Of a DNA stretch of 64,000 nucleotides, positions 9,756 through 61,851 are shown in pieces. Position numbers and translations under genes: made by a program. The stretch is from Diphasiastrum complanatum (taxonomy: Eukaryota > Streptophyta > Lycopodiopsida > Lycopodiales > Lycopodiaceae), in contig CM055112.1 in assembly GCA_029204225.1 (NCBI GenBank), forward strand, positions 25,433,922 through 25,497,921, in the 5' to 3' direction. Under the pieces are notes generated by a model. It saw only the letters and a program-made list of their open reading frames with translations, was not told the origin of the DNA and did not search any database. Each line of letters begins with the position of its first letter. The stretch's first letter is position 1.

Positions 9756-10050
9756 GGTGTGCATCTAACGATTTAAACAACAAAATCATTCTCAACACTT
9801 GTGATCTCAGACACATGAAATTTGTAGACCGTTGATAGTATGACTACCCTTCAAGCAATATTCCCTTATCAAGCCACTCCCAGCAGATGCACCAGAAATG
9901 TTACGTGTGCGGCTGACGGTCTAAACAACAAAATCATTCTCAACCCTTGCAATCCAGACACATGAAATTTGTAGACCATTGATAGTATGACTACCCTTCA
10001 AGCAATATTCCCTTATCATGCCACTCCTGGTAGACACACCAAAAATGTTA
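9756..10050. repeat. two tandem copies of a 147-148 bp leader/LTR-edge unit
   Basis: TGTTA occurs at 9751, 9899 and 10046, and the intervening 148- and 147-bp segments are clearly alike. Shared parts are TTTAAACAACAAAATCATTC-like sequence, ACACATGAAATTTGTAGACC and CCTTCAAGCAATATTCCCTT. Each unit ends in a primer-binding-like GCACCA(A/G)AAATGTTA. A longer, more diverged version lies at about 9240-9750. Confidence 0.8.
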
Positions 10051-10307
10051 TGACATTTTCCACTCAAGGGATCAAAGCTAAGGGGAAAACAACATAACAT
10101 GATACATCACCACTATGTGTTCAGTGTCGTGCTGTTATGAGAATGGCCGTACACTTCCCAAACACAAAGCTAACTAGGGAATCCTTGACATGTTCTATCG
10201 ACCAAGTCGTACCTCTATAGCTAATAGAGGTTTTATATGACTCTAGAGACATAGCCTATAAAGGGTTATACTCACTTCCTCAGTCTTCTTGAAACTCACA
10301 ACTTGCA
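10046..10307 (-). repeat. 262-bp gypsy-type LTR
   Basis: Minus orientation TGCAAGTTGTGAG ... CATAACA. It matches 11946-12207 (+, also 262 bp) and 61566-61851 (+, 286 bp including an AT-dinucleotide insertion). The three copies have the same ends although their outer flanks differ. It contains CTTTATAGGC and a CTCTATTAGCTATAGAG inverted repeat. The minus-strand leader and gag follow at 10045-8291. Confidence 0.75.
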
Positions 10308-11260
10308 CTACCTTTAAAAGGTTTTCATTTGTAAGTGCATTGTTTGGTTCAAGATGCAAAGATAGATGTCACTTTCATTATATCACTTGGATTTATTTGA
10401 TGTCCTTGGAAAGCATTTTGTGAACTTTGGATAAGTTAAAAGTTATTGTTATGATCAAAGAAAAACCAAGCTTAAGGAGGAGAAATCACAAAATGAAAAT
10501 AGTTCCATTTATGAAGAACTATTTTTCTTTGAAGAGATTTTTGTATCTCAAAGGTGGATTAAGACAATACTAGTTGATTGTAATTCCTTAATAGATAGCA
10601 AAGCATGTTTTCCTTGTAATCTTACATTAAATATAAAGTCAAGGAAATGGAGATGTCTTCATAATGTGTTTTCTTTTGGTTTCAATAAGATCAAGAATGA
10701 TGTGTTCATTCACTGATGTTGAAAATTGTAAATTTTCAATCTTGGAGGCATGTTGTAAACTTCTTATGAGAATAAGTGAGGCATCCAAAATGGACACTTA
10801 TATCCATAATCAAGTAGTTAGCCTCATTGAGATGGAAATAATCTTTGATTTCAATATTAGAAAAATCATGCCAAGTTGTGGTGATTTTGGAATTATGTTT
10901 CTAGCATAAGCAGTATTGATGATCATAGAAAGTGCACATTGTATGGTTATGTTTGTTGTGATCATTATGAGACATGGAGGTCTTGGTTTTCCATCAAGGA
11001 GGAGCATGCACATGAAGAAGGAGAATGCCTCAAGGTCAAGCATCTATATGAAATTTGAAAGGAATCAATTTTGGAGGTGCTAGGATGGTACAAAAAGCAC
11101 TCAAGTTCATCAAAGAAGTCAACATCAAGGAGACACTATCACGGATAAAGTGATCTCTGATCTTCATCAAACTCATCGACTGATCTTCACACCTATGAAC
11201 CTGCAATGATCGGCCTTAAGTGTTGTAAATAGATGTACCATAGATGTATCAAGCTAAACA
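10308..11260 (+). pseudogene. 3' internal region of a non-autonomous copia (relative of 16334-21408)
   Basis: Within 10664-10909 the plus strand reads ACCKLLMRISEASKMDTYIH and VSLIEMEIIFDFNIRKIM. This aligns with NCKLLLRLSEASKVDTYILE and IKIVFDIKIRSIM in the unassigned C-terminal part of the 857-codon protein of the element at 16334-21408. Near 11078-11150 it has KALKFIKEVNIKETLSRI, matching that protein's end (EISTKEILSWIW). Stops and frame changes separate the conserved pieces. A polypurine tract and LTR start follow, so its position in the element is the same. Confidence 0.65.
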
Positions 11261-11814: not shown

Positions 11815-11945
11815 GGAATTGCGTCTAGGGCTTCACGATCCATTGCCAGAGTATGTGTTAGAGAACTTAAATGATATCATCAAGGATTCTAGAAGAGGAG
11901 AAAGAGGTAGTTCTGGAACTTCGCAAGCAAGCAAGATATCATTTG
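11815..11945 (+). pseudogene. end of an internal ORF preceding the 262-bp LTR
   Basis: The plus strand reads ELRLGLHDPLPEYVLENLND then IIKDSRRGERGSSGTSQ. The same segment (RLGLPDPLPEYVLENLND) occurs at 61421-61500 before the other plus-strand LTR. This is a conserved 3' internal segment of the gypsy family; the protein region is not one I recognise. Homology to the second copy starts sharply at 11815. Confidence 0.55.
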
Positions 11946-12207
11946 TGCAAGTCGTGAGTTTCAAGGAGATTGAGGAAGTGAGTATAACCCTTTATAGGCT
12001 ATGTCTCTAGAGGCCTGGAAAGCCTCTATTAGCTATAGAGGTACGGCTTGGTCGATAGAACATGTCAGGGATCCCCTAGTTAGCTTTGTGTTTGGGACGT
12101 GTACGGCCATTCTCGTAACAGCACGACACTGAACACGTAGTGGTGATGTACCCTGTTATGTTGTTTTTCCCTTAGCTTTGATCCCCTGAGTGGAAAATGC
12201 CATAACA
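11946..12207 (+). repeat. 262-bp gypsy-type LTR
   Basis: TGCAAGTCGTGAG ... CCATAACA, the same length as the inverted copy at 10046-10307. It is preceded by 3' internal sequence (11815-11945), so it is a 3' LTR. Downstream, at 12208, begins the dispersed repeat described next, not an element leader. Confidence 0.75.
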
Positions 12208-14202: not shown

Positions 14203-14751
14203 ATGTCTGGGGAAAGTTGGAAGCATGACAATGATGCAAGGTACCACCAGGCTCCTGAAAGGCCTGTTCTTTGTGCGAATAATTGTGGGATTTTTGGGAG
14301 TAAGGACACAATGAACTTGTGCTCAAAGTGTTACACATCCAATTCTGTCATCAGGCGAGACATCAACTTCACTGGAACGAGTTTTGAGGGAACTACCACG
14401 ACGTTAGAAACACCAAACTCCGAATTGACATCCTCCCGGCCGGTTGATTTACCGAGGGAAGGTAGAGACGTAGCTACATTTGCATCACATACTGAGCTTG
14501 CTGACATTGGAAAACCTGCCGCTGGTGTTTCGACAGAAGCTACCGCATCTCACGATCCTAGTCGATGCTTTTCCTCTAGCAAACGCGTTCCATTGTATGG
14601 GCTAATTAAATGTCGATACGAAAATGTATTTTGCTCATTGCACCGATACGCTGAAACGCATCAGTGTACAACTGATTACAAAGCGATTGGGCACGATGCC
14701 ATCACAAAGGCAAATCTTGTAGTCAAGGCTAAAAAGTTAGAGAGAATTTAA
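14203..14751 (+). CDS. stress-associated protein with A20 and AN1 zinc fingers, AN1 degenerate
   Basis: 182 codons, intronless, ATG at 14203. The N-terminal A20 finger is complete: C24, C28, C40 and C43 in LCANNCGIFGSKDTMNLCSKC. The C-terminal AN1 finger runs from residue 122 to 155. It keeps C122, C137, C144, H147, H153 and C155 but has Ser at 125 and Tyr at 139 where Cys ligands are expected. The family-typical tail DYKAIGHDAITKAN is present. Members are small cytosolic/nuclear stress-response proteins, and A20 can bind ubiquitin (family knowledge). Length is normal for the family (about 130-190 residues). The two lost ligands suggest an AN1 finger that no longer folds around one zinc, so this is either a young pseudogene or a divergent paralogue. 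It is the only host-type gene in the window, with retroelements on both sides. Confidence 0.82.
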   Translation: MSGESWKHDNDARYHQAPERPVLCANNCGIFGSKDTMNLCSKCYTSNSVIRRDINFTGTSFEGTTTTLETPNSELTSSRPVDLPREGRDVATFASHTELADIGKPAAGVSTEATASHDPSRCFSSSKRVPLYGLIKCRYENVFCSLHRYAETHQCTTDYKAIGHDAITKANLVVKAKKLERI

Positions 14752-16333: not shown

Positions 16334-16335
<2 letters not shown>

Positions 16336-17142
16336 TTGAATTTCACACGTGTGGACTGTCCACTACATGTACTTGTGATCTCCTAAGGTGTGTAGATGCA
16401 CCAAGATCAAGACTAGATTGAGATTCAAGATCTATCTTTGATTCTATAGCAAAAACACACTACTACATGCATTCAATCACTTCCAACTCTCACTCACACG
16501 TGTGTGAAGTGTTCCAAAAGTATTCTAAGTAAAAACAAGCTGCTCTCCTCGGGTAGAGAGAGAAAAACCATCAAGAGCTCTCGGGTAGAGAGAGAAAGCT
16601 AGAAATTCAATGACACTCAAAATCCACTCAATCTCAAAATCAATTAGATCCAAAAGGAGGAGTACAATGATACTAATAGATTCATGAGCTACCACTATGC
16701 TTAACTATGATTGGATCACACTTTGCCACCTCTTAATCCTATTGGACCATTGATCCATGCACCTCTAAATTCTATTGGACTATATTCAAGCACACCTCAA
16801 TTTTCTATTGGACCTCACAAGGTTCCACCTCTAAATCCTATTGGACCTCTTAAGCTTCATCAAACAAAAGCATGACACTTGTCTACACTCTAATTGGCAC
16901 AAGTTTGGCTCAATATTGGCATTACAAGTGGAAATGGATAATGTGCCATCTATGCCAAATTTGACCCTATCAACATCCTACACCTAAATGCTTGACTATG
17001 AAATTCTATGAGACCCCTATATCAAACATTTTGATTTACTTTACAATTCTCCACACGTGGGAACATCCTCCACACATGTGAGATTCACTTACAAACTTCT
17101 ATCATAAAAAATACCAAGCTAGATTTTTGCCAATTTCTCACA
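16334..17142 (-). repeat. 3' LTR (809 bp)
   Basis: Minus orientation TGTGAGAAATTGGC ... GAAATTCAACA. CACACGTGTG sits at 16344-16353, a second CACACGTGTGTG lies near 16497, and related CCACACGTGG and CCACACATGTG lie near 17055-17080. On the plus strand it contains several CTATTGGAC repeats, near 16740-16850. Confidence 0.95.
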
Positions 17143-17155
17143 CTCCTCCTCAAAA
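17143..17155 (-). other. polypurine tract
   Basis: The minus strand reads TTTTGAGGAGGAG directly before the LTR TGTGAG. This is the expected start site of plus-strand DNA synthesis. Confidence 0.85.
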
Positions 17156-17268
17156 AATAGCTTGGAAAGGTACTAGATCACTTGAGAAGTTTGTAAATCT
17201 TTTTGAGTGGATCCTTTGGTATGCATAAGAAGTGAAGATCAGCCAAGGGATCCATCATAGCAGCACCC

Positions 17269-19842
17269 TCACCATATCCATGATAAGATCTCTTTGGTAG
17301 AGATCTCTTGCCAATGCCTTTGAAGAGTGCTCCACCAATATGCCATTATTATCATGGGCTTCCTCCATGCTTGATGATGATTTTTGCCTTGAAAGTTCCA
17401 CTTGCATGATGGATGCACCATAAATAGAGAAATCTGAGGCTTCCAAGCCTCATAAGGATCATGGAGATCAAGATCATAAGATGTGAAACAATGATGATTA
17501 TCAAGATTATGCTTTCTAGCTTGACTAGTCCACATACAATGAACTATATCCATGATGGACCTAATCTTGATATCAAAGACTATCTTGATCTTTTCTAGGC
17601 TAGTTACTCTCTCAAGGATGTAAGTGTCCACTTTGGATGCTTCACTTAATCTCAAGAGGAGTTTACAATTTGCCTCAAAACATGTGAAAACATGATTTTC
17701 AAAAAAGTGAGTACCAAGCTCAATCTTGTTCTTACTAGAACCAAGAGTATACTTTTGACAATACAATATCTTGCTTTCAAAAAGTATTGGAAACACATCT
17801 AAGTCAATAATGACAAGAAACATGTCCATACCATAAGCATCATACATAACTAGTATAGCTTTTCTTGAACTTTGAGATCCAAAAAATTCAATGAAGCAGG
17901 ATAGCATTTCAAGCAAAGGAAGAGAAGCATATATGAATGTGTTGTAGTAGATACAACATGAAAGATGCCCCTCTTTGCCATGTAAGGTGAGCCATAAAGA
18001 CTCAGCCATGCATCTTGAAGATCTTCTTGAAGTCATATGAAGAAGAAACTCCTCCTCACACATTGGCCCCATCATAACTTGAATACCTTCAAAAAGGATA
18101 ACTTGTGATGCTTCTTGAGAAGCCTTGATCTCGGCCACTTCCAAGATTGAATCTTCATGCAATATGACATCTCTATTCACCATCACATTTGAAATAGAGA
18201 GTGTAAAGACACTAAAGGCCTCCTTGATGGATGAGTATCCAATCATGATCCATGAGCTTGGATCATCCTTCCTTCTTGTTTCCAAGGGAATATATGCAAA
18301 GCAAGCACTACCAAGTTCACTAAGGTGATCAACCTTAGGCTTCATCTTGAATAAAACTTCATATGGTGCTATTCCTTCAAGAGCTCCAATACTCCTCAAA
18401 GCTTTGATCTTCAATGAGAATTTCTTCTCAACATATGCTTTGAATAATAAGGAATAATCATACACCATAATACTTGAAGAGAGAAAATATGTGCATCTTG
18501 TGTGATCATACTCCTTTGAAATATTGGACATATAAGAAACATCAAGAGAGTTTGCACTCTCACTTGGATCAAATTTGTAGATCCCTTCAAATCTTGATCC
18601 ATATGCAAGGATCTCACCATCCTTCTTAATCACACAATTGTCAATATTGAAATTGACATCAAAGCCACTATCAAGAAGTTGGCCAACACTTAAGATGTTC
18701 TTTGTAAGCTTTGGGACAAAAAGAACATTGTTGAGAAAGAGATCTTTAGAAGATGCAAGCTTCAAGGGAATAATCCCTACTCCTTCAATATTGCACTCAT
18801 GCTTACTTGCAAAGTATATGGTCTTCTTGACTCCATCATAAGGCATAATAGATGAAAAAAAGTGCTTGGAGCCACACATATGTGAAGATGCTCCACTATC
18901 AATATACCATGAGTCATCCTTGTTGAAGGTGGAAGAGGAGAAGCTTGATGCCAAAAGAGAGCCTTCTCCATCACTTGCAATATAGTCTTCTTTCTCATTG
19001 GTGATGTTGGCTTGATTGAGTTGATTCTTCTTCTTGAAGCAATTGGTGGCATAATGGCCTTTCTTGCCACAATAAAAGCACTTGATCATCTTCTTCTTGA
19101 GATTTGAATTAGAAGCATGAGAGGTGTCCTCCTCCTCTCCATCTTGGTCTTTAGCTTTGTCATTAGAGAAATGATGGTGTTGCTTCTTACTCCTCTCTTT
19201 GTGCTTGGCAAATAGAACTTTGCCATCATCATGATTGAGTGATAGCTTGTCCATCCTCAAGAGTTTGTACTCTTGTCTTGATTCTTCAGAAATAAGCACA
19301 CTTTGAAGGGCCTCCAAACTTGGTAGCTCCTCCTTAATAGCATAGGATTGGACAAGGTTGTCATATTCATCTCTCAAGCCATTGAGAATGACTTGGACTA
19401 GCTCACTTTGATTGATTGAGTCACCAATACATGCAAGCTCTCTATGAATATCCTTGACTCTCAAAACATAATTAGATGCACTCTCATCACTCTTTTGACT
19501 ACTTTGGAATATTTGATTTCTAAGAGTGAGGAGCCTAGAGGTGTTCTTAGCCTCATAGATGGACTTGAGACAATCCCAAGCTTCCTTGGATGTAGAACAA
19601 TCACCAATCTCCCTCAATATCTCATTAGAGACATTCATCTTAATGTAGTGGAGAGCCATCCTAGCTCTCTTCTTGTATTTTTGTACTTCTTGAAGGACTT
19701 GAGGCTCCTCCTCAATCCCAAGTACAATGTCCATCACATCTTGGAGTATCAAGATGGACTCCATCCTCAACTTCCATATTGAATAATTGGAAGTAGACAA
19801 TCTCTCACTTGGTTGCAACAAGTATGAACTCATTGAAGTCAT
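17269..19842 (-). CDS. gag-protease protein with unassigned C-terminal region (857 codons)
   Basis: The ATG at 19842 starts MTSMSSYLLQPSERLSTSNY. Residues 1-250 are UBN2-type gag. The zinc knuckle is C255, C258, H263, C268, and the protease motif DSGAS is at D315. Residues about 350-425 are the usual linker. About 449-483 is a scrap of integrase (FKAYVEKKFSLKIKALRS), followed directly by the integrase C-terminal region (APYEVLFKMKPKVDHL ... IPLETRRKDDPSS). The zinc-binding HHCC and the D,D,E residues are gone. The usual pre-RT hinge (TSRRSSR, about 604-610) leads into roughly 245 residues with no RT or RNase H motif that I recognise. Two parts of this tail (CKLLLRLSEASKVDTYI near 700 and EISTKEILSWIW at the end) recur at 10664-11150 and 36811-37041. 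The frame is uninterrupted and the element young, so the protein may be made; the function of the tail is unknown. Confidence 0.8.
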   Translation of the reverse strand: MTSMSSYLLQPSERLSTSNYSIWKLRMESILILQDVMDIVLGIEEEPQVLQEVQKYKKRARMALHYIKMNVSNEILREIGDCSTSKEAWDCLKSIYEAKNTSRLLTLRNQIFQSSQKSDESASNYVLRVKDIHRELACIGDSINQSELVQVILNGLRDEYDNLVQSYAIKEELPSLEALQSVLISEESRQEYKLLRMDKLSLNHDDGKVLFAKHKERSKKQHHHFSNDKAKDQDGEEEDTSHASNSNLKKKMIKCFYCGKKGHYATNCFKKKNQLNQANITNEKEDYIASDGEGSLLASSFSSSTFNKDDSWYIDSGASSHMCGSKHFFSSIMPYDGVKKTIYFASKHECNIEGVGIIPLKLASSKDLFLNNVLFVPKLTKNILSVGQLLDSGFDVNFNIDNCVIKKDGEILAYGSRFEGIYKFDPSESANSLDVSYMSNISKEYDHTRCTYFLSSSIMVYDYSLLFKAYVEKKFSLKIKALRSIGALEGIAPYEVLFKMKPKVDHLSELGSACFAYIPLETRRKDDPSSWIMIGYSSIKEAFSVFTLSISNVMVNRDVILHEDSILEVAEIKASQEASQVILFEGIQVMMGPMCEEEFLLHMTSRRSSRCMAESLWLTLHGKEGHLSCCIYYNTFIYASLPLLEMLSCFIEFFGSQSSRKAILVMYDAYGMDMFLVIIDLDVFPILFESKILYCQKYTLGSSKNKIELGTHFFENHVFTCFEANCKLLLRLSEASKVDTYILERVTSLEKIKIVFDIKIRSIMDIVHCMWTSQARKHNLDNHHCFTSYDLDLHDPYEAWKPQISLFMVHPSCKWNFQGKNHHQAWRKPMIIMAYWWSTLQRHWQEISTKEILSWIW

Positions 19843-20587
19843 GTAAAGTGGAGATAAATAAAAGTGATGAACAAAAAATGTTGCTTCTCTCTCACTATAG
19901 GATCCAATAATGGTGTGCTACCATCTCCTATGCAAGATCTTGCAACAAACTGTGAGATGATTCTCACTAGCTATCTCAATCTCTCCAAAACTAGATCTAC
20001 TTCACATCAAATGATGGAGTATGGGCAAAGTTAGGATCAAACACTCTTAGCACGTGTGAAATACACTAAGAAACCAAATTTGACTCAAATACAATGATAT
20101 TGCATGAAACAAAATGGCTAAGATCTCAAAACAATGCCTAGATCACATATAGATGAGATTGGTAAGCATTCAACTGTGATTTTGGATCAAACAAGCAATC
20201 TTTTGACCAAACCAAATGTGTCCACCCAGGTCTAGGTGCCCTACCTAACCCTCTTCAAAAGCTTATAACTTTTGATTGGCTCAACCAAATGGAATGAAAC
20301 TGATTGCATCAGAAACTAGACAAAAATAGCTTCAAAACAAGCTATCTAGCAAGATTTTTGGATCAAACATGAAAGAGAACTCCCAAACTGAAATTGGATG
20401 TTCCTCACACGTGTCTGAGCACCTGATTCCGTACAGTACCAGGTCAGACCCAATCAATGTCCTTTTGATCTCTTTTGATCCAAAATTGAACAAGATAGCT
20501 AGGAAAATGGGCCTTGACAATTTCTAGCTCAAGATTGATGAATAGTTTTCACTCAAATGGATCAAAATGCATGGTAATCTTAGGTAG

Positions 20588-20599
20588 GCTCTGATACCA
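20588..20599 (-). other. primer-binding site (initiator tRNA-Met type)
   Basis: The minus strand reads TGGTATCAGAGC immediately after the 5' LTR end (...TTCAACA). The leader runs from here to the ATG at 19842, about 745 nt, and holds no other gene. Confidence 0.95.
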
Positions 20600-21408
20600 T
20601 GTTGAATTTCACACGTGTGGACTGTCCACTACATGTACTTGTGATCTCCTAAGGTGTGTAGATGCACCAAGATCAAGACTAGATTGAGATTCAAGATCTA
20701 TCTTTGATTCTATAGCAAAAACACACTACTACATGCATTCAATCACTTCCAACTCTCACTCACACGTGTGTGAAGTGTTCCAAAAGTATTCTAAGTAAAA
20801 ACAAGCTGCTCTCCTCGGGTAGAGAGAGAAAAACCATCAAGAGCTCTCGGGTAGAGAGAGAAAGCTAGAAATTCAATGACACTCAAAATCCACTCAATCT
20901 CAAAATCAATTAGATCCAAAAGGAGGAGTACAATGATACTAATAGATTCATGAGCTACCACTATGCTTAACTATGATTGGATCACACTTTGCCACCTCTT
21001 AATCCTATTGGACCATTGATCCATGCACCTCTAAATTCTATTGGACTATATTCAAGCACACCTCAATTTTCTATTGGACCTCACAAGGTTCCACCTCTAA
21101 ATCCTATTGGACCTCTTAAGCTTCATCAAACAAAAGCATGACACTTGTCTACACTCTAATTGGCACAAGTTTGGCTCAATATTGGCATTACAAGTGGAAA
21201 TGGATAATGTGCCATCTATGCCAAATTTGACCCTATCAACATCCTACACCTAAATGCTTGACTATGAAATTCTATGAGACCCCTATATCAAACATTTTGA
21301 TTTACTTTACAATTCTCCACACGTGGGAACATCCTCCACACATGTGAGATTCACTTACAAACTTCTATCATAAAAAATACCAAGCTAGATTTTTGCCAAT
21401 TTCTCACA
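20600..21408 (-). repeat. 5' LTR (809 bp)
   Basis: Same length as and apparently identical to 16334-17142. It drives minus-strand transcription of the element. One palindrome, CACACGTGTG (20610-20619), lies about 10 nt from the primer-binding site, and another near 20763 lies about 160 nt from it. Confidence 0.95.
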
Positions 21409-36620: not shown

Positions 36621-36843
36621 ACATCCGATGTCGGAATCCGACATCCACGTGGACCCGGCCAGCTTCCACCGAGACTTGATGTTTTGAATTTCGGCAAGTT
36701 ATGGATGTCGTATTCCGACGTGTAATATAAATGTTAGATTTCGACGACGTCATTGCGATGTGTTTTTTCGACATCCGCGACGAATTAAGAAAAAATTAAA
36801 CTCGTGATTCATGTCGCAAATCGCAGCGGCGCGTGTTGTAGTG
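36621..36843. mobile_element. possible CACTA-type transposon end
   Basis: Read from 36843 leftwards on the minus strand it begins CACTACAACACGCGCC. This resembles the terminal inverted repeats of plant CACTA elements. Inside it are repeated, partly palindromic GATGTCGGAATCCGACATC and GGATGTCGTATTCCGACG motifs, comparable to subterminal repeats. The GC and CpG content is much higher than the surroundings. I did not find the partner terminus. Confidence 0.4.
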
Positions 36844-37175
36844 TGTGATTTTCACAAGATATGGAGACATCAGATTTTCTTCAAAACGAAGCATCAAGAT
36901 CAAAGAGGAGCAAGTTTCAAGTTCATGCATCTTCACTTAACATGGAAGAAATCAAGTACAAAGGTGCAAGGAAGAATCAAGACTCTTCAATTCATCTTGG
37001 AGGAGATCGAGATCAAAGAAGCTCTATCTTGGATATGGTGATAGATCATGTCATCATCTTTAGGGGTCATTAGTCATTTTCTAGACCTGAATTTGATTCA
37101 TTTCTAATGTTAAGATCGGGTCTTAGAATTGTGTATAGATACATTATTGTTTCCAAGGCTAGATTTGAGGAGGAG
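36844..37175 (+). pseudogene. 3' internal end of a non-autonomous copia, with polypurine tract
   Basis: Contains FMHLHLTWKKSS then LQFILEEIEIKEALSWIW and a stop at 37041, matching the end of the 857-codon protein (EISTKEILSWIW). An overlapping frame (METSDF ... SSLNMEEI ... ILDMV) resembles the alternate frame of the same region at 17255-17446. TTGAGGAGGAG at 37165-37175 is the polypurine tract. The left part is replaced by the CACTA-like sequence. Confidence 0.6.
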
Positions 37176-39339: not shown

Positions 39340-40584
39340 AGAAAGTTGCTTTAGCTTCACATTTTGGTTGGCCTTTGCATCAGATGGATGTGAAATCTGC
39401 TTTTATAAATGGTGAGTTAGAAGAAGAGGTGTTCATCGATCAACCTGAAGGCTTTGTAGCGAAAGGACAGGAGAATAAAGTATGTCGCTTGAAGAAAGCA
39501 CTTTATGGTCTTAAACAGGCACCACATGCGTGGTACAGCAGGATTGATGCCTACTTTCGTTCTAAGAGGATGGTGAGAACAAATTCTGATCCAAATCTTT
39601 ATGTCTTATGCTTTGATGGTATGGTTGCTTTGATCGATCTTTATCTTGATGACTTGATTATCACGAAAAATAATCAAGAGATGATAGACATGATCAAGAA
39701 AGACCTCATGGAACAATTTGAGATGACAAATTTCAGCCTAATGCATTATTGCCTTGGATTTGAGGTGTGGCAAAAAGGACACGAAATGGGTTTAACACAG
39801 GTGAAGTATGTCAGAGAGTTGCTGCACAAGTTCAGGTTGCAAGATTGCAAGCTAGTGAACACTCCTATTGAACCATGTAAAAAGCTTTCTAAGCTTGATG
39901 AGTCACAGCCATTTGATGTTACATTGTATAGGCAGTTAGTAGAGAGCTTGATTTACGTTACCATGACTAGACCAGATATATGCTATGTTGTTGGCATTGT
40001 AAGTCAGTTTATGGCAGCACCTACGGAAACACATTGGAAGGAAGCTAAGCACATTTTGCGATATGTCAAAGGCACTTTCAATTATGGCTTGGTTTACGTG
40101 AGGGTTTACCTGAGTTATGTGTCTATGTGGATGCGGATTGGGGAGGTGACTATGACGATCGTAGATCCACCATAGGGTATGTATTCTAGCTTTGTGATAG
40201 TTGCTTTTCCTGGTCTAGTAAAAAGCAAAGTACAGTTGCTTTATCTACAACAGAAGCAGAGTATAAGACAATGTGTAGTGCAGCACATGAAGCTATATGG
40301 TTGAGGAAAATCTTGGATGAAGTTGGCATGAAACAAAAAAATTCCACGACTATATATAGCGACAATCAGAGTGGCATTCAGCTAGCAAAGAATTTAGTGT
40401 TCCATGCGAGAACCAAACACATTGAGATTTAGTATCACTTTATACGTGAGAGGCTGTTGAGTCATGAAATTAATGTTGTTCATTGTAGTACGGACAAACA
40501 ACTAGCTGATATTTGCACTAGGCCACTTGTTAGAGAAAAGTTTGATAAGTTTAGATCAAAGCTTTCTGTACTTAAATTTTATTG
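39340..40584 (+). pseudogene. copia RT-RNase H fragment
   Basis: From ALASHFGWPLHQMDVKSAFI, NGELEEEVFIDQPEGFVAKG, ALYGLKQAPHAWYSRIDAYF and active site LYLDDLIITKN (YLDD for YVDD) to YVKGTFNYGLVY. A frameshift near 40095 and stops follow, then YVDADWGGDYDDRRSTIGYV, LSTTEAEYKTMCSAAHEAIW, YSDNQSGIQLAKN, ARTKHIEI and LADICTRPL. The 266-codon open part is 39375-40175. It starts inside RT, next to the LTR end, so it is 5'-truncated. Confidence 0.88.
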
Positions 40585-43531: not shown

Positions 43532-43545
43532 TGTTGGGCACTTAG
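43532..43545 (+). repeat. start of an older LTR split by the intact copia
   Basis: TGTTGGGCACTTAG reads as an LTR start and continues at 49407 (CTTAGTGGGCCCTACCACTA) after the inserted element. Its last five bases are the left TSD of that element. Confidence 0.5.
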
Positions 43546-44198
43546 TGTGAAAAATTGTCAACTAGTAGTATTTTCCTAACTTGAGATTTTGTAGGCCTAT
43601 GGCCAAATAAAAGTTAGAGATAGGTTCATACATGTATGTAGAGGCCCAAAGTATGTGTACACTACTTTTGAGGTCACATTAATTAGAGGAGGTCGAGTGT
43701 GGAGCTCTTCTATTGGCTCATAATTTGGTGCATTCCTATTTGACCAAATTTCTAGGTATATGGGTGAATCCTATTGGACCCCAATTTTAGCCTATCATAA
43801 GACAAGTGGCCAAGAGGCACTATGGCTGCTATAAATAGCCATCTCCACGAGTATGTACATATCTCATTTTCATTCTATTGAATGAATGTTATGCTCTTTG
43901 AAGATCCATCTTCTTCTCTCTCACTTTTTTGTTCATATCTTGCATTCTAGCCACTAGAATTGTGATTTCTTTGTTGCTATGGCTTCACACGTGTGAAATG
44001 CAGGTTGTAGGCTCTGAAGTACGGACAGGGACAGCAAGTTTCTGTTTGTGGAAGCTTATGATCAGATTTTGATGTTTAGTTGATGTTTAGTATGCTTAAC
44101 ATCACAATTTCTATCATTTTTTCAATCTAGATGTGCATAACTTCCATGGCCAAGATCTTTATGAAACTTTAGCATCTTTTGGATCTGAGTTTTTCACA
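43546..44198 (+). repeat. 5' LTR (653 bp)
   Basis: TATA box TATAAATA at 43830-43837. Palindrome TTCACACGTGTGAA at 43984-43997, about 150 nt downstream of the TATA box and 200 nt upstream of the primer-binding site. CCAAATAAAAG and CTATTGGACC lie upstream. It drives element transcription. Confidence 0.96.
43830..43837 (+). promoter_or_regulatory. TATA box of the LTR promoter
   Basis: TATAAATA in GCTATAAATAGCC, itself a short palindromic context. Transcription would start roughly 30 nt downstream. The same box lies in the 3' LTR at 49038-49045. Confidence 0.75.
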
Positions 44199-44210
44199 TG
44201 GTATCAGAGC
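44199..44210 (+). other. primer-binding site (initiator tRNA-Met type)
   Basis: TGGTATCAGAGC immediately follows the LTR without a spacer. The leader 44211-44807 (about 600 nt) carries no other ORF of note. Confidence 0.96.
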
Positions 44211-44807
44211 ATTAGGCGGCCAAATGTGCAGGTTTTGCCAGATTTAGAAGAGATTTGTGGGCGAGTTTGCTTTTGTAGCATTCCAATCAAGTTTCTAGCT
44301 AAAAATCTTGTTGATTTATGTGTAGAAATTGGATCTTTGTGATCAAAACATCATTTGTATGCTTTTCAATTGAAGTAGGGCGAATTCCCTCTGTACTTAT
44401 CAGAATAAGGAGACAAAAATTGTTTTGGAAAGAGGGAGATGCAAGATCCAACAAGATCCTATTAGTTTTCCATTCTAGCATATAGTTTTTTGATTCAATT
44501 TCTTGCTTCTTCATGTCAAAAACTTCAAAATTGATGTAACCCTCTGATTTTCAGTTTGCTGAATGATTCAAGAGTGTATTTCAATCTTAGGAGTGAGGGA
44601 AAAGCAAGTATATTGAGGTTTGGTCTTGGTTTGATCAAGAAATCATAAAACTAGTGGCTAAAATTAAGGAAAAAGTGAGGAAAAGAGAGAAAAAGTAAGG
44701 TTTTAGGTTCCAAATCTTTGTGATTTCTTCTTGTGTTTCATTTGTTGATTCAAGAGAGTGCTTAGTGCATTGGAACAGGTCAAAGATCAGAGATCAATCA
44801 TTGCAAC

Positions 44808-47800
44808 ATGGCTACAAATGGAGGCTACATGTTGGAAAGCAATGATAGGCTTACCTCCCTCAACTATTCTACTTGGAAAGTAAGGATGGAGTCTTTGCTT
44901 GAGATGAATGAGTTGATGGATATTGTTGTAGGTGTGGAGGAGAGACCTTTGGCACCTCAAGAACAATTGAGGTATGACAAGAGGGCAAAGAAAGCCCTTC
45001 ACATGATCAAGATGAATGTGACAAATGAGCTTATCAAAGAGGTTGGTAAGTGCACATCATCTAGTGAAGCTTGGGAAGCCTTGAAGAAGGTTTATGAATC
45101 CAAGTCTACTTCTAGAGTGTTGACTTTAAGAAGGCAAATCTTTTCTTGTATGCAAAAGAAGAGTGAGAATGGACATGCTTTTGTTTTGAGAGTTAAAGCA
45201 TTGAATGATGAGTTAGCATGCATTAATGATGGCATAAATAATGAGGAGCTTGTTCAAGTGATTCTCAATGGCTTGTTGGATGATCATGCTAATCTTGTTC
45301 AAAGTTATGCTATCCAAAAATGTTTACCAAGTGTTGGAGACTTGCAAGAGGTCTTGTTGGCTGAAGAATTCAGGTTGCAAGCAAGAGTGGGAGCATCTTC
45401 TACATCTCAAGGAGGAGAAGAGGAGGCAATGTTCTCTAAAGGCAAGTTCAAGGGCAAAGGTAAAAGCAATTGGTCTAAAGGGCAAGACCAAGGTGAGCAC
45501 TCTACTTTTGGCAAAAAGAAGGATAGATCTAAGCTAAAATGTTTCTATTGTGGAGTCAAAGGGCATTTTGCTAGTGATTGTTTTAAGAAAAAGAGGGATC
45601 AAGGGGAAAAGCAAACCAATCTAACTATTGATGAGGGTGGGGATGAGCTTCTTTCAAATGATGCTTTTGTTATGTCATCTTGCTTGTTGGCTAATCATGG
45701 AGACATTGATCCTTGGTGGATTGATAGTGGAGCCACTTCTCATATGACATATCATAAAGAGTATTTTTCATCTTTAATGGCATTTGATGGTGATAGGAAG
45801 GTAATCTATACCGCAAATGATGGTGAGTGTGCAATCAAGGGGATTGGCACAATTCCTATTTCACTTTCTACAAATAGGAATATAGAATTGAAAGATGTTT
45901 TGCTCATTCCATCCATTACCAAGAACTTACTTAGTGTAAGCCAAATGCTTGACAAAGGATTCAAAGTTGAGTTTGATGGTGATGCTTGCTTGATCAAAAA
46001 GGGGTGTAGTATCATTGCAAAAGGGAAAAGGCAAGGGAAATTGTTCAAGCTTGATGCATGTGTTGTTGCTAACCAAGTTGGATGCATGGCAAATGAACAA
46101 ATGTCAATTCAAGAGGTATGGCATAAAAGGATGGGACATCTCAACTACAAGGCCTTGGAGGTAATAGCCAAAAAGGAGGTAGTAAGGGGACTTCCCAAGT
46201 CTCTTACTTGCTTGAATCATGTTTGTGAAGAATGTGCTTTGTCTAAATCACATAGATTGCCATATACTAGATCTATATCTAGATCTAAGATGCCTTTTTC
46301 TCTCTTGCATTCGGATATTCATGGTGTTACTACAATTAGCAATGGAGGTGCTAAGATGTATGTAACTTTCATTGATGATTTTAGTAGATTTTGTTGGGTT
46401 TATCTACTAAAGAGCAAGGATGAGGTGTTTGATGTGTTTGTCAAGTTCAAAGTTGCTATTGAGACTCAATTTACAACCAAAATCAAATGCTTGAGGAGCG
46501 ACAATGGTGGTGAATACATTTCTAACAAATTCAAAGCCTTTTGCGATGAGCATGGGATCAAGAGGGAGTACACATGTCCAAGAACACCACAACAAAATGG
46601 AGTGGCCGAGAGGAAGAATAGAACCTTGTGTGAGAGTGCAAAGGCAATGAGATTGAATGCTAATCTTCCTAAACCTTTTTGGAGTGATGCTTTGTTGTGT
46701 GCAAATTTCCTATGCAATAGATGGCCAAGTGTTGTATTGGAAGGAAAAACCCCTTTTGAAGCTTTGTTTGGTACGAAGCCTAATGTCAAGTTTCTAAGAA
46801 CTTTTGGATGCATTTGCTACTTCAACATTACTCTTGATGATAGAACTAAGGAGGATCCATCTTCAAGAAAGGGCATTTTTGTTGGTTATAGTGAAGTAAG
46901 CAAAGCATATAGGATTTATGTTCCTTCAATCAAGAAAGTGTTCACAAGTAGGGATGTCATTTTTGATGAAAGTAACATTCCAAAAGTTGTTTCAAGTGAT
47001 GATGGTGTTGTTGCAACTAATGTGCTTGATGACAATGGAGTTGATGACACATTGGATGTGGATGTTGAAGAAGCCTCTTCAAGTCAAATTCCAAGGAGAA
47101 CTCCAAGGCATAAAGTGAAACCCTCAAGGCTCACTTATGATGGCAAAGGTAAGCAAGTGGTGGATGGATCCAACTATGCTTTCCTAACTTCTTTTGATGT
47201 ACCTTCATGTGTAGATGAAGCAAGGCAAAAAGAGGAATGGATCCAAGCAATGGATCTTGAGTTTGAAGCACTTATGAAGAACAACACATGGAGATTGGTG
47301 GAGCTTCCAAAGGGCAAAAGTGCAATTGGATGCAAATGGATCTTCAAGGTAAAGACAAATCAAGATGGATCTATCAACAAGTTGAAGGCAAGGTTGGTGG
47401 CTAAAGGTTATGCTCAAGAGCATGGCATTGACTATGAGGAAACCTTTGCACCCGTGGCAAAGATGGTGAGCATAAGAGTAATCATTTCCCTTGCAACTCT
47501 TTATGGATGGGATCTTTGGCAATTAGACATTTCTAATGCTTTCTTGAATGGTGATCTTGAAGAGGAAGTCTACATGGAGCAACCCGAGAGCTATGTTTCT
47601 CATAGCAAGCCTAATCATGTGTGTTTTCTACAAAAAAGTTTGTATGGTCTTAAGCAAGCACCAAGGAGTTGGTATGCTAGGCTTAACTCTTTTCTACTTT
47701 CTCAAAACTTCACTATGAGTGAGTATGATCATTCACTTTACTTTAGAATTAGTGCTAATGATGTTACAATCCTTCTAATTTATGTGGATGACATTATTTT

Positions 47801-48758: not shown

Positions 48759-49406
48759 AAAATTGTCAACTAGTAGTATTTTCCTAACTTGAGATTTTGT
48801 AGGCCTATGGCCAAATAAAAGTTAGAGATAGGTTCATACATGTATGTAGAGGCCCAAAGTATGTGTACACTACTTTTGAGGTCACATTAATTAGAGGAGG
48901 TCGAGTGTGGAGCTCTTCTATTGGCTCATAATTTGGTGCATTCCTATTTGACCAAATTTCTAGGTATATGGGTGAATCCTATTGGACCCCAATTTTAGCC
49001 TATCATAAGACAAGTGGCCAAGAGGCACTATGGCTGCTATAAATAGCCATCTCCACGAGTATGTACATATCTCATTTTCATTCTATTGAATGAATGTTAT
49101 GCTCTTTGAAGATCCATCTTCTTCTCTCTCACTTTTTTGTTCATATCTTGCATTCTAGCCACTAGAATTGTGATTTCTTTGTTGCTATGGCTTCACACGT
49201 GTGAAATGCAGGTTGTAGGCTCTGAAGTACGGACAGGGACAGCAAGTTTCTGTTTGTGGAAGCTTATGATCAGATTTTGATGTTTAGTTGATGTTTAGTA
49301 TGCTTAACATCACAATTTCTATCATTTTTTCAATCTAGATGTGCATAACTTCCATGGCCAAGATCTTTATGAAACTTTAGCATCTTTTGGATCTGAGTTT
49401 TTCACA
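48754..49406 (+). repeat. 3' LTR (653 bp)
   Basis: Same length and sequence as the 5' LTR as far as I can read. The palindrome is at 49192-49205. Its first bases supply the stop codon of the polyprotein. Confidence 0.96.
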
Positions 49407-50316: not shown

Positions 50317-50672
50317 TGTTGAAAATAAAAATCATCTATCTTGACTTTAGGCTTGCTACAAAGTCTTATCAATGTAAGTTTGTTGTTTCATAAATGTAAA
50401 TGCCAGATTTGGCCTTGATGGAACTCGAGCTATATGGGTTTCACAAATCTAGTTGATAGAATACAACTTGCATATAGATTGTAGACTTAGAAATGACATT
50501 AATATGCTTGTAGAAACTCATGGCCTATCAGATGCATTTATTGTAAGTGGTCCATAGTGACATGCAAGACATGCACAAAGTGCAATGGACACATGCATAA
50601 TGATTTGTACAATTCTAGATAGAAAATCCCACTTGGTAAAAGTAAATAGATATGCATGCATGAGATTTGACA
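50317..50672 (+). repeat. 5' LTR, truncated, fused to a primer-site remnant
   Basis: Matches the first half of the 3' LTR (TGTTGAAAATAAAAATCATC to GCATGCATGAGAT). It then jumps to ATCAGAGCC, the inner part of the tRNA-Met primer site, so about 360 bp of LTR and the first bases of the primer site are deleted. 50673-51429 is leader with the LTR-like motif CTCACGTGTGAA near 50855. Confidence 0.75.
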
Positions 50673-51429
50673 ATCAGAGCCAAATTAACCTTTGCATACT
50701 AAAATCTCTGATTGTTCAAGAATTTGAGAGCTAGTTCAAGCAAAAAAGCAGTTAATCACTTTTCTTTACCTTTTTCTGAAAAGTGTTTGGATCAAAGTGG
50801 ATGAAAACTGATTTTTCAGGTCAGATCAATGATTGTACGGAATTCTAAAATTCCTCACGTGTGAAAATCATAGTTTTTCAGTGCCTTCTATTTCCTTGTT
50901 ATTTGATCCAAAGATAGTGCTGTAATAGCTTGATGGAAAGCTTATTCCATAGAAATTGATCCCAAATCAATCTGATGTGTCTATCAAGAGTTATAAGCTC
51001 TTAAAGAGGGTAGGGAGAGGTCCAAAATCCGAGTGACCACTTTTTGATTTAATTCAATCTTGCTTGATTCTGAATCCATTGTTTTGAGTATCCTACACAA
51101 GAAACTGAAGATCAAAACTAAGTTTAATGTTATTGAACAGCTTTGAGCCTTCTGAGTATCACTAGTGTTTTCTTTTGAAGTATCTAACATGTGCCAAAAG
51201 TAGGATTCAAACTTGTCTAAGTACCTCAATCCACTTTGAGTGACTGATCTAGAAAATCTTGTTTTGTAGAATATTTGAGATCCATCTCAAATACAGTTGC
51301 AAGTTTTTTCACATAGGAAGGTAGCACATCCTTGAAAATACCTATAGTAAATGAGAGTAGCAATATTAAGTCTGATTGGAACAAGCTCAAACATATAATT
51401 GTCCAATAATTAAGAAGTCTTCACAATAT

Positions 51430-52362
51430 GGCATCTGTGGGAGGATATCTCCTAGAAGCAGGTGAAAGACTAAGTACCTCTAATTACTCAATTTGGAAGG
51501 TTAGAATGAAGTCCATTTTTATACTCTAGGATGTTATGGACATAGTACTTGGTATTGAGGAGGAGCCTCAAGCACACATTGAAATACCAAAGTACAAGAA
51601 GAGAGCTAGAATGTCTCTACATTTCATTAAGATGAATGTATCTAATGAAATTTTGAGAGAAATAGGATCTTGCACCATTGCCAAAGATGCTTGGGATGCA
51701 CTTAAGTCCATCTATGAAGCTAAGAATAATTCTAGAATACTCACTCTTAGGAATCAGATTTTTTCCAAAGAAGTGAGGAGAGTGCATCAAACTATGTTCT
51801 GAGAGTTAAAGATCTTCATAGGGAGCTTTCTTGTGTTGGTGTTACAATTAACCAAGATGAGCTAGTACAAGTCATTTTAAATGGCTTGAAAGATGACTAT
51901 GATAATCTTGTTCAATCCTTTGCCATTAAGGAGGAGTTGCCTAATTTAGAAACTCTCGAAGGAGTTCTCATCTCTGAAGAAGCTATGCAAAATTATAAAC
52001 GTTCTAGGATGAACAAACTCGAGCATATTGCAAGTGACAAAGCTCTCTTTATCAAAGACAAGCATAAAGGAAGGAACAAAAACCAGTTTTCTCAAGCTTT
52101 CAACAAAGACAATGCCAAGGAGAAAGACAAAGATGGTGAAGAGGATGACTCATCTCATCCTTCTACTTCCAACAAGAAGAAGAAATTCAAGTGTTTCTTT
52201 TGTGGCAAGAAGGGGCACTATGCCTCCAATTGCTTCAAAAAGAAAAACCAACTCAAGCAAGCAAATCTCTCCAAAGAGATTGAAGAAGGCTTTATTGCAA
52301 GTGATGGAGAAGGATCACTCATGGTGTCAAGTTTTTCTTCATCACTTTTCAAGGAAGATTGA
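51430..52362 (+). pseudogene. copia gag with zinc knuckle, broken
   Basis: The ATG at 51430 reads MASVGGYLLEAGERLSTSNY, then a stop in FIL-stop-DVMDIVL near 51528. 51536-51802 carries IEEEPQAHIEIPKYKKRARM and KDAWDALKSIYEAKNNSRIL, followed by a frameshift. 51886-52362 carries YDNLVQSFAIKEELPNLETL, a Lys/Asp-rich stretch and the intact knuckle CFFCGKKGHYASNC. Protease (52363-52600) is WYVDSGAFSHI after a stop, with a further stop near 52441. Confidence 0.85.
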
Positions 52363-52609
52363 GCTTGGTACGTAGATAGTGGAGCTTTTTCACATATTTG
52401 CCGGTCCAAGGAGTCATTTGATTTTATTGAACCTTATAAATGACTCAAAAGATCTATTTATACTACAAATGATCATGAGTGCTCTATTGATGGAATTGGC
52501 AACATTCCACTGAAACTTGCTTCTTCTAAAGTTCTATCACTTTCCAATGTTCTTTTTGTTCCTAAGCTTACAAAGAACTTGATTAGTGTTGGAAAATTGC
52601 TTGATATGA

Positions 52610-52862
52610 CATTTGCTCCAGTGGCTAAGTGGACTACGCTATGCCCTATCATTGCCCTAGCATCTCATTTTGGGTGGAAGATCCATCAAATGGATATGAA
52701 GTCCGCATTTTTGAATGGTGCCTTAGAGGAAGAAGTTTACATGGTCCAACTGCAGGGCTTTATGGCACAAGGACGAGAACAGAAGGTATGTAAGCTACAC
52801 AAAGCACTTTATGGCCTTAAGCAAGCGCCACGTGCATGGTATGGACACATTGACAATTACTT
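52610..52862 (+). pseudogene. RT fragment lodged between protease and integrase
   Basis: After the pre-integrase linker (SVGKLLDM) the sequence switches to TFAPVAKWTTLCPIIALASH, FGWKIHQMDMKSAFLNGALE and ALYGLKQAPRAWYGHIDNYF, which is RT. At about 52863 it returns to the linker (FIKKNDEILANGSRYSEI in frame +2). The inserted RT type resembles the copia at 39340-40584 rather than this element. Confidence 0.8.
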
Positions 52863-52879
52863 TATACTTGCTTTATCAA

Positions 52880-53755
52880 GAAAAATGATGAGATTCTAGC
52901 TAATGGATCTAGATATAGTGAAATTTTCAAGTTGAATTCTTTTGAGAATGCAAACTTTTGTGAAGTTGCTCTTTTCTCTAAGGAGGAGTTATGGCATAGA
53001 AGGTTGGGGCATCCTAACTTTAAGTCTATGATTTCTATGATCAAGAGAGATAAGGCTATTGGCCTTCCAAGATCACTCTCCAAGGATTTCAAGCATTGTG
53101 AGGCTTGTGCTATTGCAAAATCACATAGAAGACCATATCAAAAGTCTTTCATTAAGACTTCTCATTCTTTGGAGCTAATACAATCGGATGTTCATTTTTC
53201 TTCTACTAAAAGTATTGGTGGTGCAGCATGTTTTGTCACCTTTATTGATGACTTTACAAGATATACCTGGTTGTATCTACTTATGGTATTTGATCACTTC
53301 CTAATCTTCAAAGCTTATGTTGAGAAACAGTTTTATTTCAAAGTTAAAGCTTTAAGATGTGATGGAGGAGGTGAATATATCTCCAACAAGTTCTTTGATT
53401 ATTGTGAGAGTGAAGGGATTAAGAGAGAGTTTTCTTGTGCTTATTCTCCATCTCAAAATGGAGTTGCTGAGAGAAAAAATTAATTTTTATGTGAATGTGC
53501 TAAATCAATCCGAGTTGAAGCTTCTTTGCCTATTAAATATTGGGGAGAAGCAATTAATTGTTCAAACTATTTGTGCAATAGATTACCTCACAATGCACTT
53601 GCTAGAAGATCACTATATGAAGTCTTATTTTAGAAGAAACCTAAGGTAGATCACCTTAGAGTTTTTGGATGTGCTTGCTTTGTTCATGTACCCTTGGAAA
53701 CAAGAAAAAAAGATGATCCTAATTCTATTAAAGAGATCATGGTTGGATGTTCATC
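52880..53755 (+). pseudogene. copia integrase, broken
   Basis: The zinc site is WHRRLGHPNFKSM ... HCEACAIAKSH. Catalytic D is in IQSDVHFSS and the second D is in ALRCDGGGEY; the E is in GVAERKN, followed at once by a stop near 53481. A short deletion sits at LYLLMVFDHF. The integrase C-terminal region continues in other frames (IKYWGEAINCSNYLCNRLPH, VFGCACFVHVPLETRKKDDP). RT proper is then absent. Confidence 0.85.
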
Positions 53756-53913
53756 CAAAAAGAAGGCTCATTGGAGGAGAAATCTACCTGGAGCACTTCG
53801 ACACATCATCTTGTATTGCAAATTTGCTCACCAAACCTTTGAGCAAAAATTCCTTCATCAAGCATAGAGCCAAACTTGGAATAATACCAAGATCCATGTT
53901 CAAGTCAACATAG
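53756..53913 (+). pseudogene. RNase H C-terminal scrap
   Basis: LEHFDTSSCIANLLTKPLSK then NSFIKHRAKLGIIPRSM, the last 40 residues or so of copia RNase H, joined directly to integrase sequence. All of RT and most of RNase H are deleted between them. It ends just before the polypurine tract (AGGATGAG) and the 3' LTR. Confidence 0.8.
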
Positions 53914-53930
53914 ATTGTTTTTAGGATGAG

Positions 53931-54646
53931 TGTTGAAAATAAAAATCATCTATCTTGACTTTAGGCATGCTACAAAGTCTTATCAATGTAAGTTTGTTGT
54001 TTCATAAATGTAAATGCCAAATTTGGCCTTGATGGAACTCGAGCTATAAGGGTTTCACAAGTCTAGTTGGTAGAATACAACTTGCATATAGATTGTAGAC
54101 CTAGAAATGGCATTAATATGCTTGTAGAAACTTGTGGCATATCACATGCATTTATTGTAAGTGATCCATAGTGACATACAAGGCATGCACAAAGTGAAAT
54201 GGACACATGCATGATGATTTGTACAATTCTAGATAGAAAAATGCCATTTGGTAAAAGTAGCTAGATATGCATGCATGAGATGTGACAAATGTCACTTAGA
54301 CTCTAGTTTTCACTTTAGATGTGATTGAAAGGTGGATGGATGAGGTTCTACATCAAACAACCTCAAACTCCATAAACATGTGTAGCTATTCTCATAATCT
54401 TTGACGAAGAACCAAGCTTGTGTTGAGGCTTATGCTCATACACTAAATTCTTGTACTTTTACTTTCTTGAAATCAAAGCTATCATTCTCTGATTCTTAGC
54501 ATGCTAGATTGTGGTTAAGCCATTAATTTCTATACTAGATCTTGCTAATCAATCTAGAATGAGTTTGTGTGCTAATCATAAAGCTCAATAAGATCAATCA
54601 CATTAGTCATTCCCCACACGTGTGAACTTGCTGAAAAATTTTGTCA
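53931..54646 (+). repeat. 3' LTR (716 bp)
   Basis: TGTTGAAAATAAAAATC ... AATTTTGTCA. CCACACGTGTG lies at 54614-54624, about 30 nt from its end. The edge is set by the GAGTA TSD. Confidence 0.85.
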
Positions 54647-61420: not shown

Positions 61421-61565
61421 ATTGCGTCTAGGGCTTCCCGATCCATTGCCAGAGTATGTGTTAGAGAACTTAAATGATATTATCAAGGATTCTTGAAGAG
61501 ATCCTCGAGAAGAATACGAGAAGAAGGTAGCTCTGGAACTTTGTAAGCGAGCAAGATATCATTAG
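61421..61565 (+). pseudogene. conserved 3' internal segment before the gypsy LTR
   Basis: ELRLGLPDPLPEYVLENLND then IIKDS and a stop, matching 11815-11945. It has a small insertion relative to copy 1 (ATCCTCGAGAAGAATAC). Confidence 0.55.
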
Positions 61566-61851
61566 TGCAAGTCGTGAGTTTCAAGAAGACTGAGGAAGTG
61601 AGTATAACATTTTATAGGCTATGTCTCTAGAGGCCTGAAAAACCTCTATTAGCTATAGAGGTACGGCTTGGTCGATAGAACATGTTAGGAATCCCCTATA
61701 TATATATATATATATATAATTAATTAGCTTTGTGTTTGGGACGTGTACGGCCATTCTCGTAACGACACGACACTGAACACATAGTGGTGCTATATCCTGT
61801 TGTGTTGTTTTCCCCTTAGCTTTGATTCCCTAAGTGGAAAATGCCATAACA
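61566..61851 (+). repeat. gypsy-type LTR, 286 bp with AT insertion
   Basis: TGCAAGTCGTGAG ... CCATAACA, the third copy of the 262-bp LTR, lengthened by a (TA)n tract at about 61697-61718. Unlike the other two it has internal sequence on both sides: 3' internal sequence before it and 5' leader after it. Confidence 0.78.

What the first reader, a model, noticed from the sequence alone, without database searches (positions are those of the whole stretch)
17269..19842. Young non-autonomous copia whose RT/RNase H is replaced by an unassigned ~245-residue tail shared by three loci
Seen: an 857-codon uninterrupted ORF with gag and protease, the integrase active site deleted, and after the usual TSRRSSR hinge no RT. 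The tail recurs at 10664-11150 (CKLLMRISEASKMDTYI; IKETLSRI) and 36811-37041 (IKEALSWIW), each just before a polypurine tract and an LTR. Reading-frame similarity across diverged loci suggests a coding accessory region or captured gene rather than random filler. Identical LTRs show this copy moved recently, so it is mobilised in trans. Inference: a lineage of gag-donating, enzyme-lacking elements with its own extra domain. An overlapping frame (17255-17446 against 36861-37073) also shows similarity, so which frame is real is open.
Basis: partly seen in the sequence, partly recalled or inferred. Interest (0 to 1): 0.72.

Follow-up and report, generated by a model that had tools for sequence, protein, structure and literature searches.

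The report
Gag-only jumping gene with borrowed tail
This is one copy of a young plant jumping-gene family that keeps its own coat-protein gene but lacks its main enzymes, and the puzzling end of its protein looks like leftover enzyme sequence taken over from another crippled family rather than a captured gene with a job of its own.

Summary
An 857-codon ORF (17269-19842, minus strand) carries gag, CCHC and protease, lacks the integrase core and RT/RNase H, and ends in a tail that recurs at about 10525-11150 and 36844-37041. The element is young and multicopy: 53 copies were scored in the window's own 1.74 Gb genome; of 36 with both LTRs complete, 31 have 5-bp target duplications and 15 have identical LTRs.

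The tail is better explained as borrowed pol-derived sequence than as a captured gene. In less diverged relatives (L049, L050) its first ~50 residues match the copia hinge/RT N-terminus (18.8 and 22.2 bits, 0 of 2000 shuffles each); about 165 residues stay unassigned. Its home is a larger non-autonomous family with a 433-codon ORF (97 copies scored). The focal element looks recombinant: 5' side like one copia family, 3' end like that other family.

Selection fits a passenger. Within the focal family only gag shows constraint (omega 0.22, shared variants); the tail does not (0.88-1.18; 1.07 against L052), with flat codon-position differences. Yet its frame stays open across about 43% nucleotide divergence, which I explain only weakly. 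Closest known kind: TR-GAG elements.

The parts
16334..17142 (-). 3' LTR, 809 nt, TGTGAGAA...TTCAACA
   Evidence: 100% identical to the 5' LTR
17143..17151 (-). polypurine tract GAGGAGGAG
   Evidence: sequence; same position in the other copies shown
17269..19842 (-). 857-codon ORF: gag, CCHC, protease, integrase remnant, SH3, hinge, tail
19270..19764 (-). gag domain (residues 27-191); gag is the only part with detectable purifying selection
   Evidence: PF14223 3e-28; omega 0.53 all, 0.22 shared variants over residues 1-250
19036..19086 (-). CCHC zinc knuckle (residues 253-269)
   Evidence: PF00098, 20.6 bits against a cut-off of 20.8
18661..18909 (-). protease region with DSGA (residues 312-394)
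   Evidence: PF22936 9e-24; omega about 1 within the family
18385..18519 (-). integrase remnant; catalytic core not recognisable
   Evidence: short tblastn pieces only; no rve hit
18148..18348 (-). integrase C-terminal SH3 domain (residues 499-565)
   Evidence: PF25597 3e-11
17955..18067 (-). hinge; probable recombination zone
   Evidence: 82/112 to the L052 hinge; similarity to the autonomous relative L051 ends at about 18048
17773..17943 (-). first part of the tail: relic of the copia RT N-terminus (bounds approximate)
   Evidence: through relatives L049/L050 and profile-profile comparison; the focal tail alone is not significant against the profile (144 of 2000 shuffles)
17272..17772 (-). 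rest of the tail, unassigned, shared with the 433-codon family
   Evidence: 35% over 226 aa to L049 for the whole tail, E 9e-30; no Pfam or convincing PDB match
20587..20599 (-). primer-binding site TGGTATCAGAGCC (initiator Met tRNA type, recalled)
   Evidence: sequence; same or nearly same in 36 of 36 copies shown
20600..21408 (-). 5' LTR
10525..11150 (+). related tail, broken by frameshifts, before a polypurine tract
36844..37041 (+). end of a related tail (KEALSWIW), before a polypurine tract and LTR
50317..54288 (+). sibling T2 of the 5' half: gag-PR-IN-SH3, then an RNase H end and LTR, no tail

Best explanation
The element belongs to a young non-autonomous Ty1/copia family that works like TR-GAG elements. 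Shown: many copies with intact ends and target duplications, constraint on gag, integrase core and RT/RNase H missing. Inferred: it is transcribed from its LTR, primed by a tRNA, makes particles with its own Gag, and takes RT and integrase from autonomous copia elements in trans. The tail came in with the 3' end of a second, larger non-autonomous family (L052 type) whose 433-codon ORF contains copia polyprotein relics, including the hinge and the first ~50 residues of the RT region, plus unassigned sequence. A recombination near the hinge joined a T2-lineage 5' half to that 3' end (inferred from mosaic similarity). The tail is now a C-terminal extension without measurable sequence-specific constraint.
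For: RT N-terminus in the home lineage: L049 18.8 and L050 22.2 bits, 0 of 2000 shuffles each; 37% over 51 aa and 41% over 58 aa to a neighbouring copia; profile-profile probability 92.7%, E 4e-7. Mosaic: focal 5' UTR 384/551 to T2 (score 291, null max 95); focal 3' end 104/130 to L049 (191, null max 72); first ~100 nt of the LTR like L049 and L050 (0 of 150 shuffles each). L051, a full-length relative of the 5' half, has RT and RNase H up to its LTR and no tail. Neutral tail; home family amino-acid identity 95.40% against 95.10% expected under neutrality, 30 copies. Gag constrained.
Against: The frame is kept: no stop in 221 aligned codons of F and L052, whereas simulated drift leaves none open in at most 10 of 3000 runs; a passenger should decay. 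Unweighted omega against L049 was 0.68 (0.47-0.98). In L052 the hinge lies downstream of the RT-like part, so the exact donor was not seen. The focal 3' end also scores above all shuffles against L051 (39/47, polypurine tract and LTR start) and 1 of 150 against T2; the focal 5' UTR gives 1 of 150 against L050. The tail part after the RT relic matches nothing. One copy each of L049, L050, L051 and L052 was read.
Confidence: 0.6

Rival explanations
1. The tail is a fast-evolving accessory protein domain that helps the element (or the shared helper machinery), built on an RT fragment or captured from elsewhere.
For: Open for 257 codons in the focal copy, no stop in the tail of 48 copies (ranked by protein score), long open frames in the home family, frame retention at high divergence, omega 0.68 (0.47-0.98) against L049 and 0.32 (0.09-1.14) L052 against L049, shared by elements with different LTRs.
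Against: Omega 0.88 and 1.18 within the family, 1.07 against L052; flat codon positions; home family at neutral expectation; no codon-usage signal specific to the frame; no Pfam or convincing PDB match.
Confidence: 0.17
2. The tail is simply the decayed RT/RNase H of the element's own lineage, shortened by deletions, without recombination.
For: Hinge, RT-like start and polypurine tract are in copia order in the focal element; RT N-terminus relic.
Against: 3' end and LTR start resemble L049/L050, while the 5' UTR resembles T2; the later tail and the sequence after the stop show no convincing RT or RNase H similarity (best 49 of 4000 shuffles).
Confidence: 0.13
3. The region is kept for a cis-acting RNA role (packaging or dimerisation) needed by elements mobilised in trans; the open frame is secondary.
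For: Flat codon-position pattern; a strongly conserved block near 17600-17670; shared by elements with different LTRs and by L049, in which no gag match was found.
Against: No folding signal (z -1.0), no Rfam family at gathering threshold, no lower variant density in the tail among 48 copies (0.128 against 0.126 per site); does not explain the open frame.
Confidence: 0.1

Closest known systems
[quoted passage not shown]
   Same: Two LTRs, one ORF with gag, no RT or integrase core, mobilised in trans; passages of PMC8704663 report transposition of one in Arabidopsis ddm1 and PMC9784723 describes them in sunflower. The defining paper (Chaparro 2015) is not held.
   Different: The ORF also keeps protease and SH3 and ends in a tail from another family.
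pol-less Athila families of Arabidopsis (Ty3/gypsy)
   Same: Passages of PMC2410132: non-autonomous families with intact gag ORFs under purifying selection, and lineages made by recombination between families
   Different: Gypsy, not copia; gag or gag+env, no such tail described in the passages seen
LARD/TRIM-type elements (recalled)
   Same: Relatives such as L049: LTR and primer site, long internal part without a gag match
   Different: They carry a pol-derived open frame
Retand elements with extra ORFs between pol and 3' LTR
   Same: Extra coding region before the 3' LTR (PMC11963269, abstract)
   Different: Gypsy lineage, antisense ORFs

Membership tests
Ty1/copia LTR retrotransposon | copia-type gag, PR and integrase C-terminal domain | tested here: met
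Ty1/copia LTR retrotransposon | LTRs with TG..CA, primer site, polypurine tract, 5-bp target duplication | tested here: met
   31 of 36 copies with perfect 5-bp duplications; 40 of 48 loci were tested, 36 had both LTRs complete
TR-GAG | two LTRs and a single ORF with a gag domain | tested here: met
TR-GAG | gag is the only encoded element protein | tested here: not met
   protease and SH3 regions remain, though without detectable constraint; so it works like a TR-GAG rather than being a strict one
TR-GAG | transposes with enzymes of other elements | not testable with these tools
   inferred from young copies without RT or integrase core
Copia RT/RNase H (decayed) | similarity to the RT N-terminus at the start of the tail | tested here: met
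   relatives L049 and L050, 0 of 2000 shuffles each; hhalign 92.7%; focal tail alone 144 of 2000
Copia RT/RNase H (decayed) | similarity to RT or RNase H over the rest of the tail | tested here: inconclusive
   none found: 1166 of 2000 and 668 of 2000 shuffles reach the score; sequence after the stop best 49 of 4000
captured host gene | match to a known protein family | tested here: inconclusive
   no Pfam match (a weak zinc knuckle in one L050 piece), no convincing PDB match; plant proteomes could not be searched

The most novel reading that the evidence does not exclude
Several non-autonomous copia families share a C-terminal region whose reading frame is kept open over long times while its amino-acid sequence drifts at the neutral rate: either an ORF kept because being open matters (for instance to keep the stop codon near the 3' end of the RNA), or a very fast-evolving accessory protein built on an RT N-terminal fragment and passed between families by recombination.
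Probability: 0.2. Interest if true: 0.65.

Novelty: new variant of a known kind. Interest (0 to 1): 0.4.

Why it matters
Within one amplifying element it separates a part that selection keeps (Gag) from parts where no constraint is seen (protease, integrase remnant, tail). That bears on whether elements mobilised in trans must supply their own Gag. It also suggests that crippled families exchange 3' ends and so make new mosaic families, and that an unassigned ORF segment in an LTR element need not be a captured gene.

Tried and rejected
Rejected or unsupported: (a) Tail as ordinary 3' sequence of related full-length elements: the intact element at 43.5-49.4 kb and the 25.9-32 kb element end their ORFs at the LTR, and T2 and L051 have an RNase H end shortly before it. 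(b) An RNase H end read in another frame after the stop: best 49 of 4000 shuffles, the others not significant. (c) Structured RNA: z -1.0, no Rfam hit. (d) Structure of the tail: pLDDT 34.9, so no fold search was made. (e) Relatives in viral contigs, genome contigs, plasmids, phages: none confirmed. (f) Codon usage: frame 0 of the tail is no better than the other minus frames (0.106 against 0.092 and 0.119), though above a Markov null (max 0.089).

Weak points in my own tests. One search prints an excess of stop-free home-family copies (18 of 30 against 7.9 expected), but the query L052 is itself open, so only about half of the divergence can create stops; with the 1% row the expectation is about 16 of 30, so I claim no excess. 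The 53 copies and the 48 examined were ranked by protein score, which favours intact frames. Counts of stops are by hand. One search used a frame shifted by one base and is replaced; misplaces one fragment. and weigh all changes alike, weigh transitions. Comparisons with A and L050 include decay after insertion, which pushes omega to 1. Searches made several tests at once; the RT link rests. The frame-retention simulation has no indels, and F was noticed, and L052 picked, as open frames.

Full report
What is there. The ORF at 17269-19842 (minus strand) is as described: 857 codons without a stop. It lies between LTRs identical over 810 of 810 nt, with a primer site TGGTATCAGAGCC and a GAGGAGGAG polypurine tract. 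Pfam sees copia gag, the protease region, the integrase SH3 domain and a zinc knuckle just below its cut-off, but no integrase core and no reverse transcriptase. Against the complete copia at 44.8-48.8 kb the integrase part aligns only in short pieces.

The tail is shared. It matches 10673-10860 (72.6% over 190 columns; 58% over 50 aa, E 5e-13) and 36847-37038 (33% over 64 aa, E 1e-4); all three pairwise scores exceed 200 shuffles each (399, 113, 196 against null maxima 95, 88, 102). The three loci end at corresponding stop codons ahead of a polypurine tract, but their LTRs are not detectably related. The focal tail frame is open for 257 codons where shuffles average 16.7 stops.

The element is a young family. 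In the window's own genome (1.74 Gb, unnamed plant) 53 copies of the whole protein were scored, 51 without a stop. I examined 48: 46 align over all 2574 nt of the ORF and two over 2572; two carry one three-base insertion each, and two carry stops, before the tail. Of 40 loci tested for ends, 36 had both LTRs complete; 31 of these have perfect 5-bp target duplications and 15 have identical LTRs. The copies were ranked by protein score, so intact frames are over-represented.

Selection within the family. Counting variants among 48 copies and weighting transitions, gag has omega 0.53 (all variants; 54 of 89 nonsynonymous, p 0.005) and 0.22 (variants shared by at least two copies; 7 of 18, p 0.0016). 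NC-protease gives 1.02 and integrase remnant plus SH3 0.96. The tail gives 0.88 (66 of 90, p 0.62) and 1.18 for shared variants (11 of 14). Gag and tail differ at p 0.036 for shared variants and p 0.08 for all. No stop falls in the tail, where about four would be expected from the ratio of sites, but the ranking favours that.

Where the tail comes from. A DNA query with the 10.7 kb locus scored 40 places, 87-100% identical, many matching to the end of the query and many only to about base 690. Two were fetched. L049 has an LTR end with primer site and then about 1.95 kb without a gag match, holding the tail region (193-codon open frame), polypurine tract and LTR. L050 has MASIGG, a zinc knuckle and integrase-like fragments before the tail. 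The focal tail matches L049 at 35% over 226 columns, E 9e-30. In these relatives the start of the tail is recognisably the copia hinge and RT N-terminus: 37% over 51 aa (L049) and 41% over 58 aa (L050) against the 25.9-32 kb element; 18.8 and 22.2 bits against a three-sequence profile, 0 of 2000 shuffles each; profile-profile probability 92.7%, E 4e-7. The match covers profile positions about 10-58 only. What follows matches nothing, and the focal tail on its own is not significant against the profile (144 of 2000).

The home family. A protein query with the L049 tail scored 150 places, 91-100% identical, in open frames from 193 to 3710 codons, often near 468; by hand count 21 of 150 contain a stop. 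One was fetched, L052. Its 433-codon ORF begins MASIGG and contains zinc-knuckle-like and integrase-like stretches, the RT-like stretch, the unassigned part, a hinge and the common end KEALSWIW. It has no Pfam hit and no convincing PDB match (best E 1.4). A query with the whole ORF gave 98 rows from 97 scored candidates, 92-100% identical; by hand count 41 of 98 rows carry a stop.

A mosaic. The focal 5' UTR resembles the sibling T2 (384/551, score 291, null max 95) and not L049 or L052; L050 gives 1 of 150 shuffles and the 25.9-32 kb element 8 of 150. The focal sequence after the stop, with polypurine tract and LTR start, resembles L049 (104/130, score 191, null max 72) and L050 (42/47, 138, null max 60); L051 (39/47, 102, null max 73) and T2 (77, 1 of 150) match mainly around the polypurine tract. 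The first ~100 nt of the focal LTR resemble L049 and L050 (0 of 150 each), T2 11 of 150, L051 3 of 150 in another part of the LTR. Gag-PR is 74% identical to T2. L051, a full-length relative of the 5' half, matches the focal SH3-linker (70.9% over 351 columns) up to about 18048 and continues with RT and RNase H to its LTR, with no tail. The focal hinge (17955-18067) matches the L052 hinge at 82/112. I read this as a recombination near the hinge. In L052 the hinge lies downstream of the RT-like part, so the donor was a relative with another order; this is inferred.

Is the tail coding. Between the two open frames F and L052, omega is 1.07 (0.76-1.47) and differences fall evenly on codon positions (92/88/94); the same method on gag against two other copia gives 0.35 and 0.36, with 104/82/173 and 110/86/173. 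F against the 10.7 kb locus is equally flat. Across 30 frame-keeping home-family copies amino-acid identity averages 95.40% against a neutral expectation of 95.10%; 9 of 39 DNA-ranked copies have a frame-changing length. Against this, an unweighted estimate for F against L049 is 0.68 (0.47-0.98) and L052 against L049 gives 0.32 (0.09-1.14, 15 changes). Frame retention is the strongest sign of use: substitutions alone at this divergence give 5-8 stops in 220 codons and leave at most 10 of 3000 simulated frames open. Part of that is choice, because F was noticed for its open frame and L052 was picked as open.

Verdict. A TR-GAG-like element with an acquired, partly pol-derived, near-neutral tail. 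TR-GAG elements and their movement are described (PMC8704663 and PMC9784723, passages), and pol-less families with selected gag and recombinant origins are known in Athila (PMC2410132, passages).

Noticed in passing
50317-54288, RT piece at 52609-52866: The sibling element T2 carries a copia RT fragment between its protease and integrase, out of the usual order, and its own RT is missing before the RNase H end; the fragment is 72% identical to 39346-39535 over 190 nt.
   Followed up: partly
43544-49406: A copia element with identical 655-nt LTRs and one 1316-aa ORF with gag, protease, integrase and RT domains; its LTR also lies in L050, 99.7-99.8% identical.
   Followed up: no
10046-10308 and 11945-12207: Inverted arms of 263 nt, 93% complementary, flank the broken related tail at 10.5-11.2 kb; pieces on both sides recur rearranged at 59350-62451.
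   Followed up: no
14203-14751: ORF of 182 aa with an A20 zinc finger and an AN1 finger just under its cut-off, the make-up of plant stress-associated proteins (recalled).
   Followed up: no
G000:C7:34201161-34201724: One home-family tail lies in an open frame of 3710 codons, far longer than the others listed.
   Followed up: no
G000:C1679: This short contig holds near-identical copies of at least two stretches of the window (100% and 99%), perhaps the other haplotype.
   Followed up: no
17600-17670 (minus): A block of the tail (GCAA.TTGTAAACT...TAAGTGA.GCATCCAAA.TGGACACTTA) is much better conserved than the rest among five sequences, at all codon positions.
   Followed up: partly
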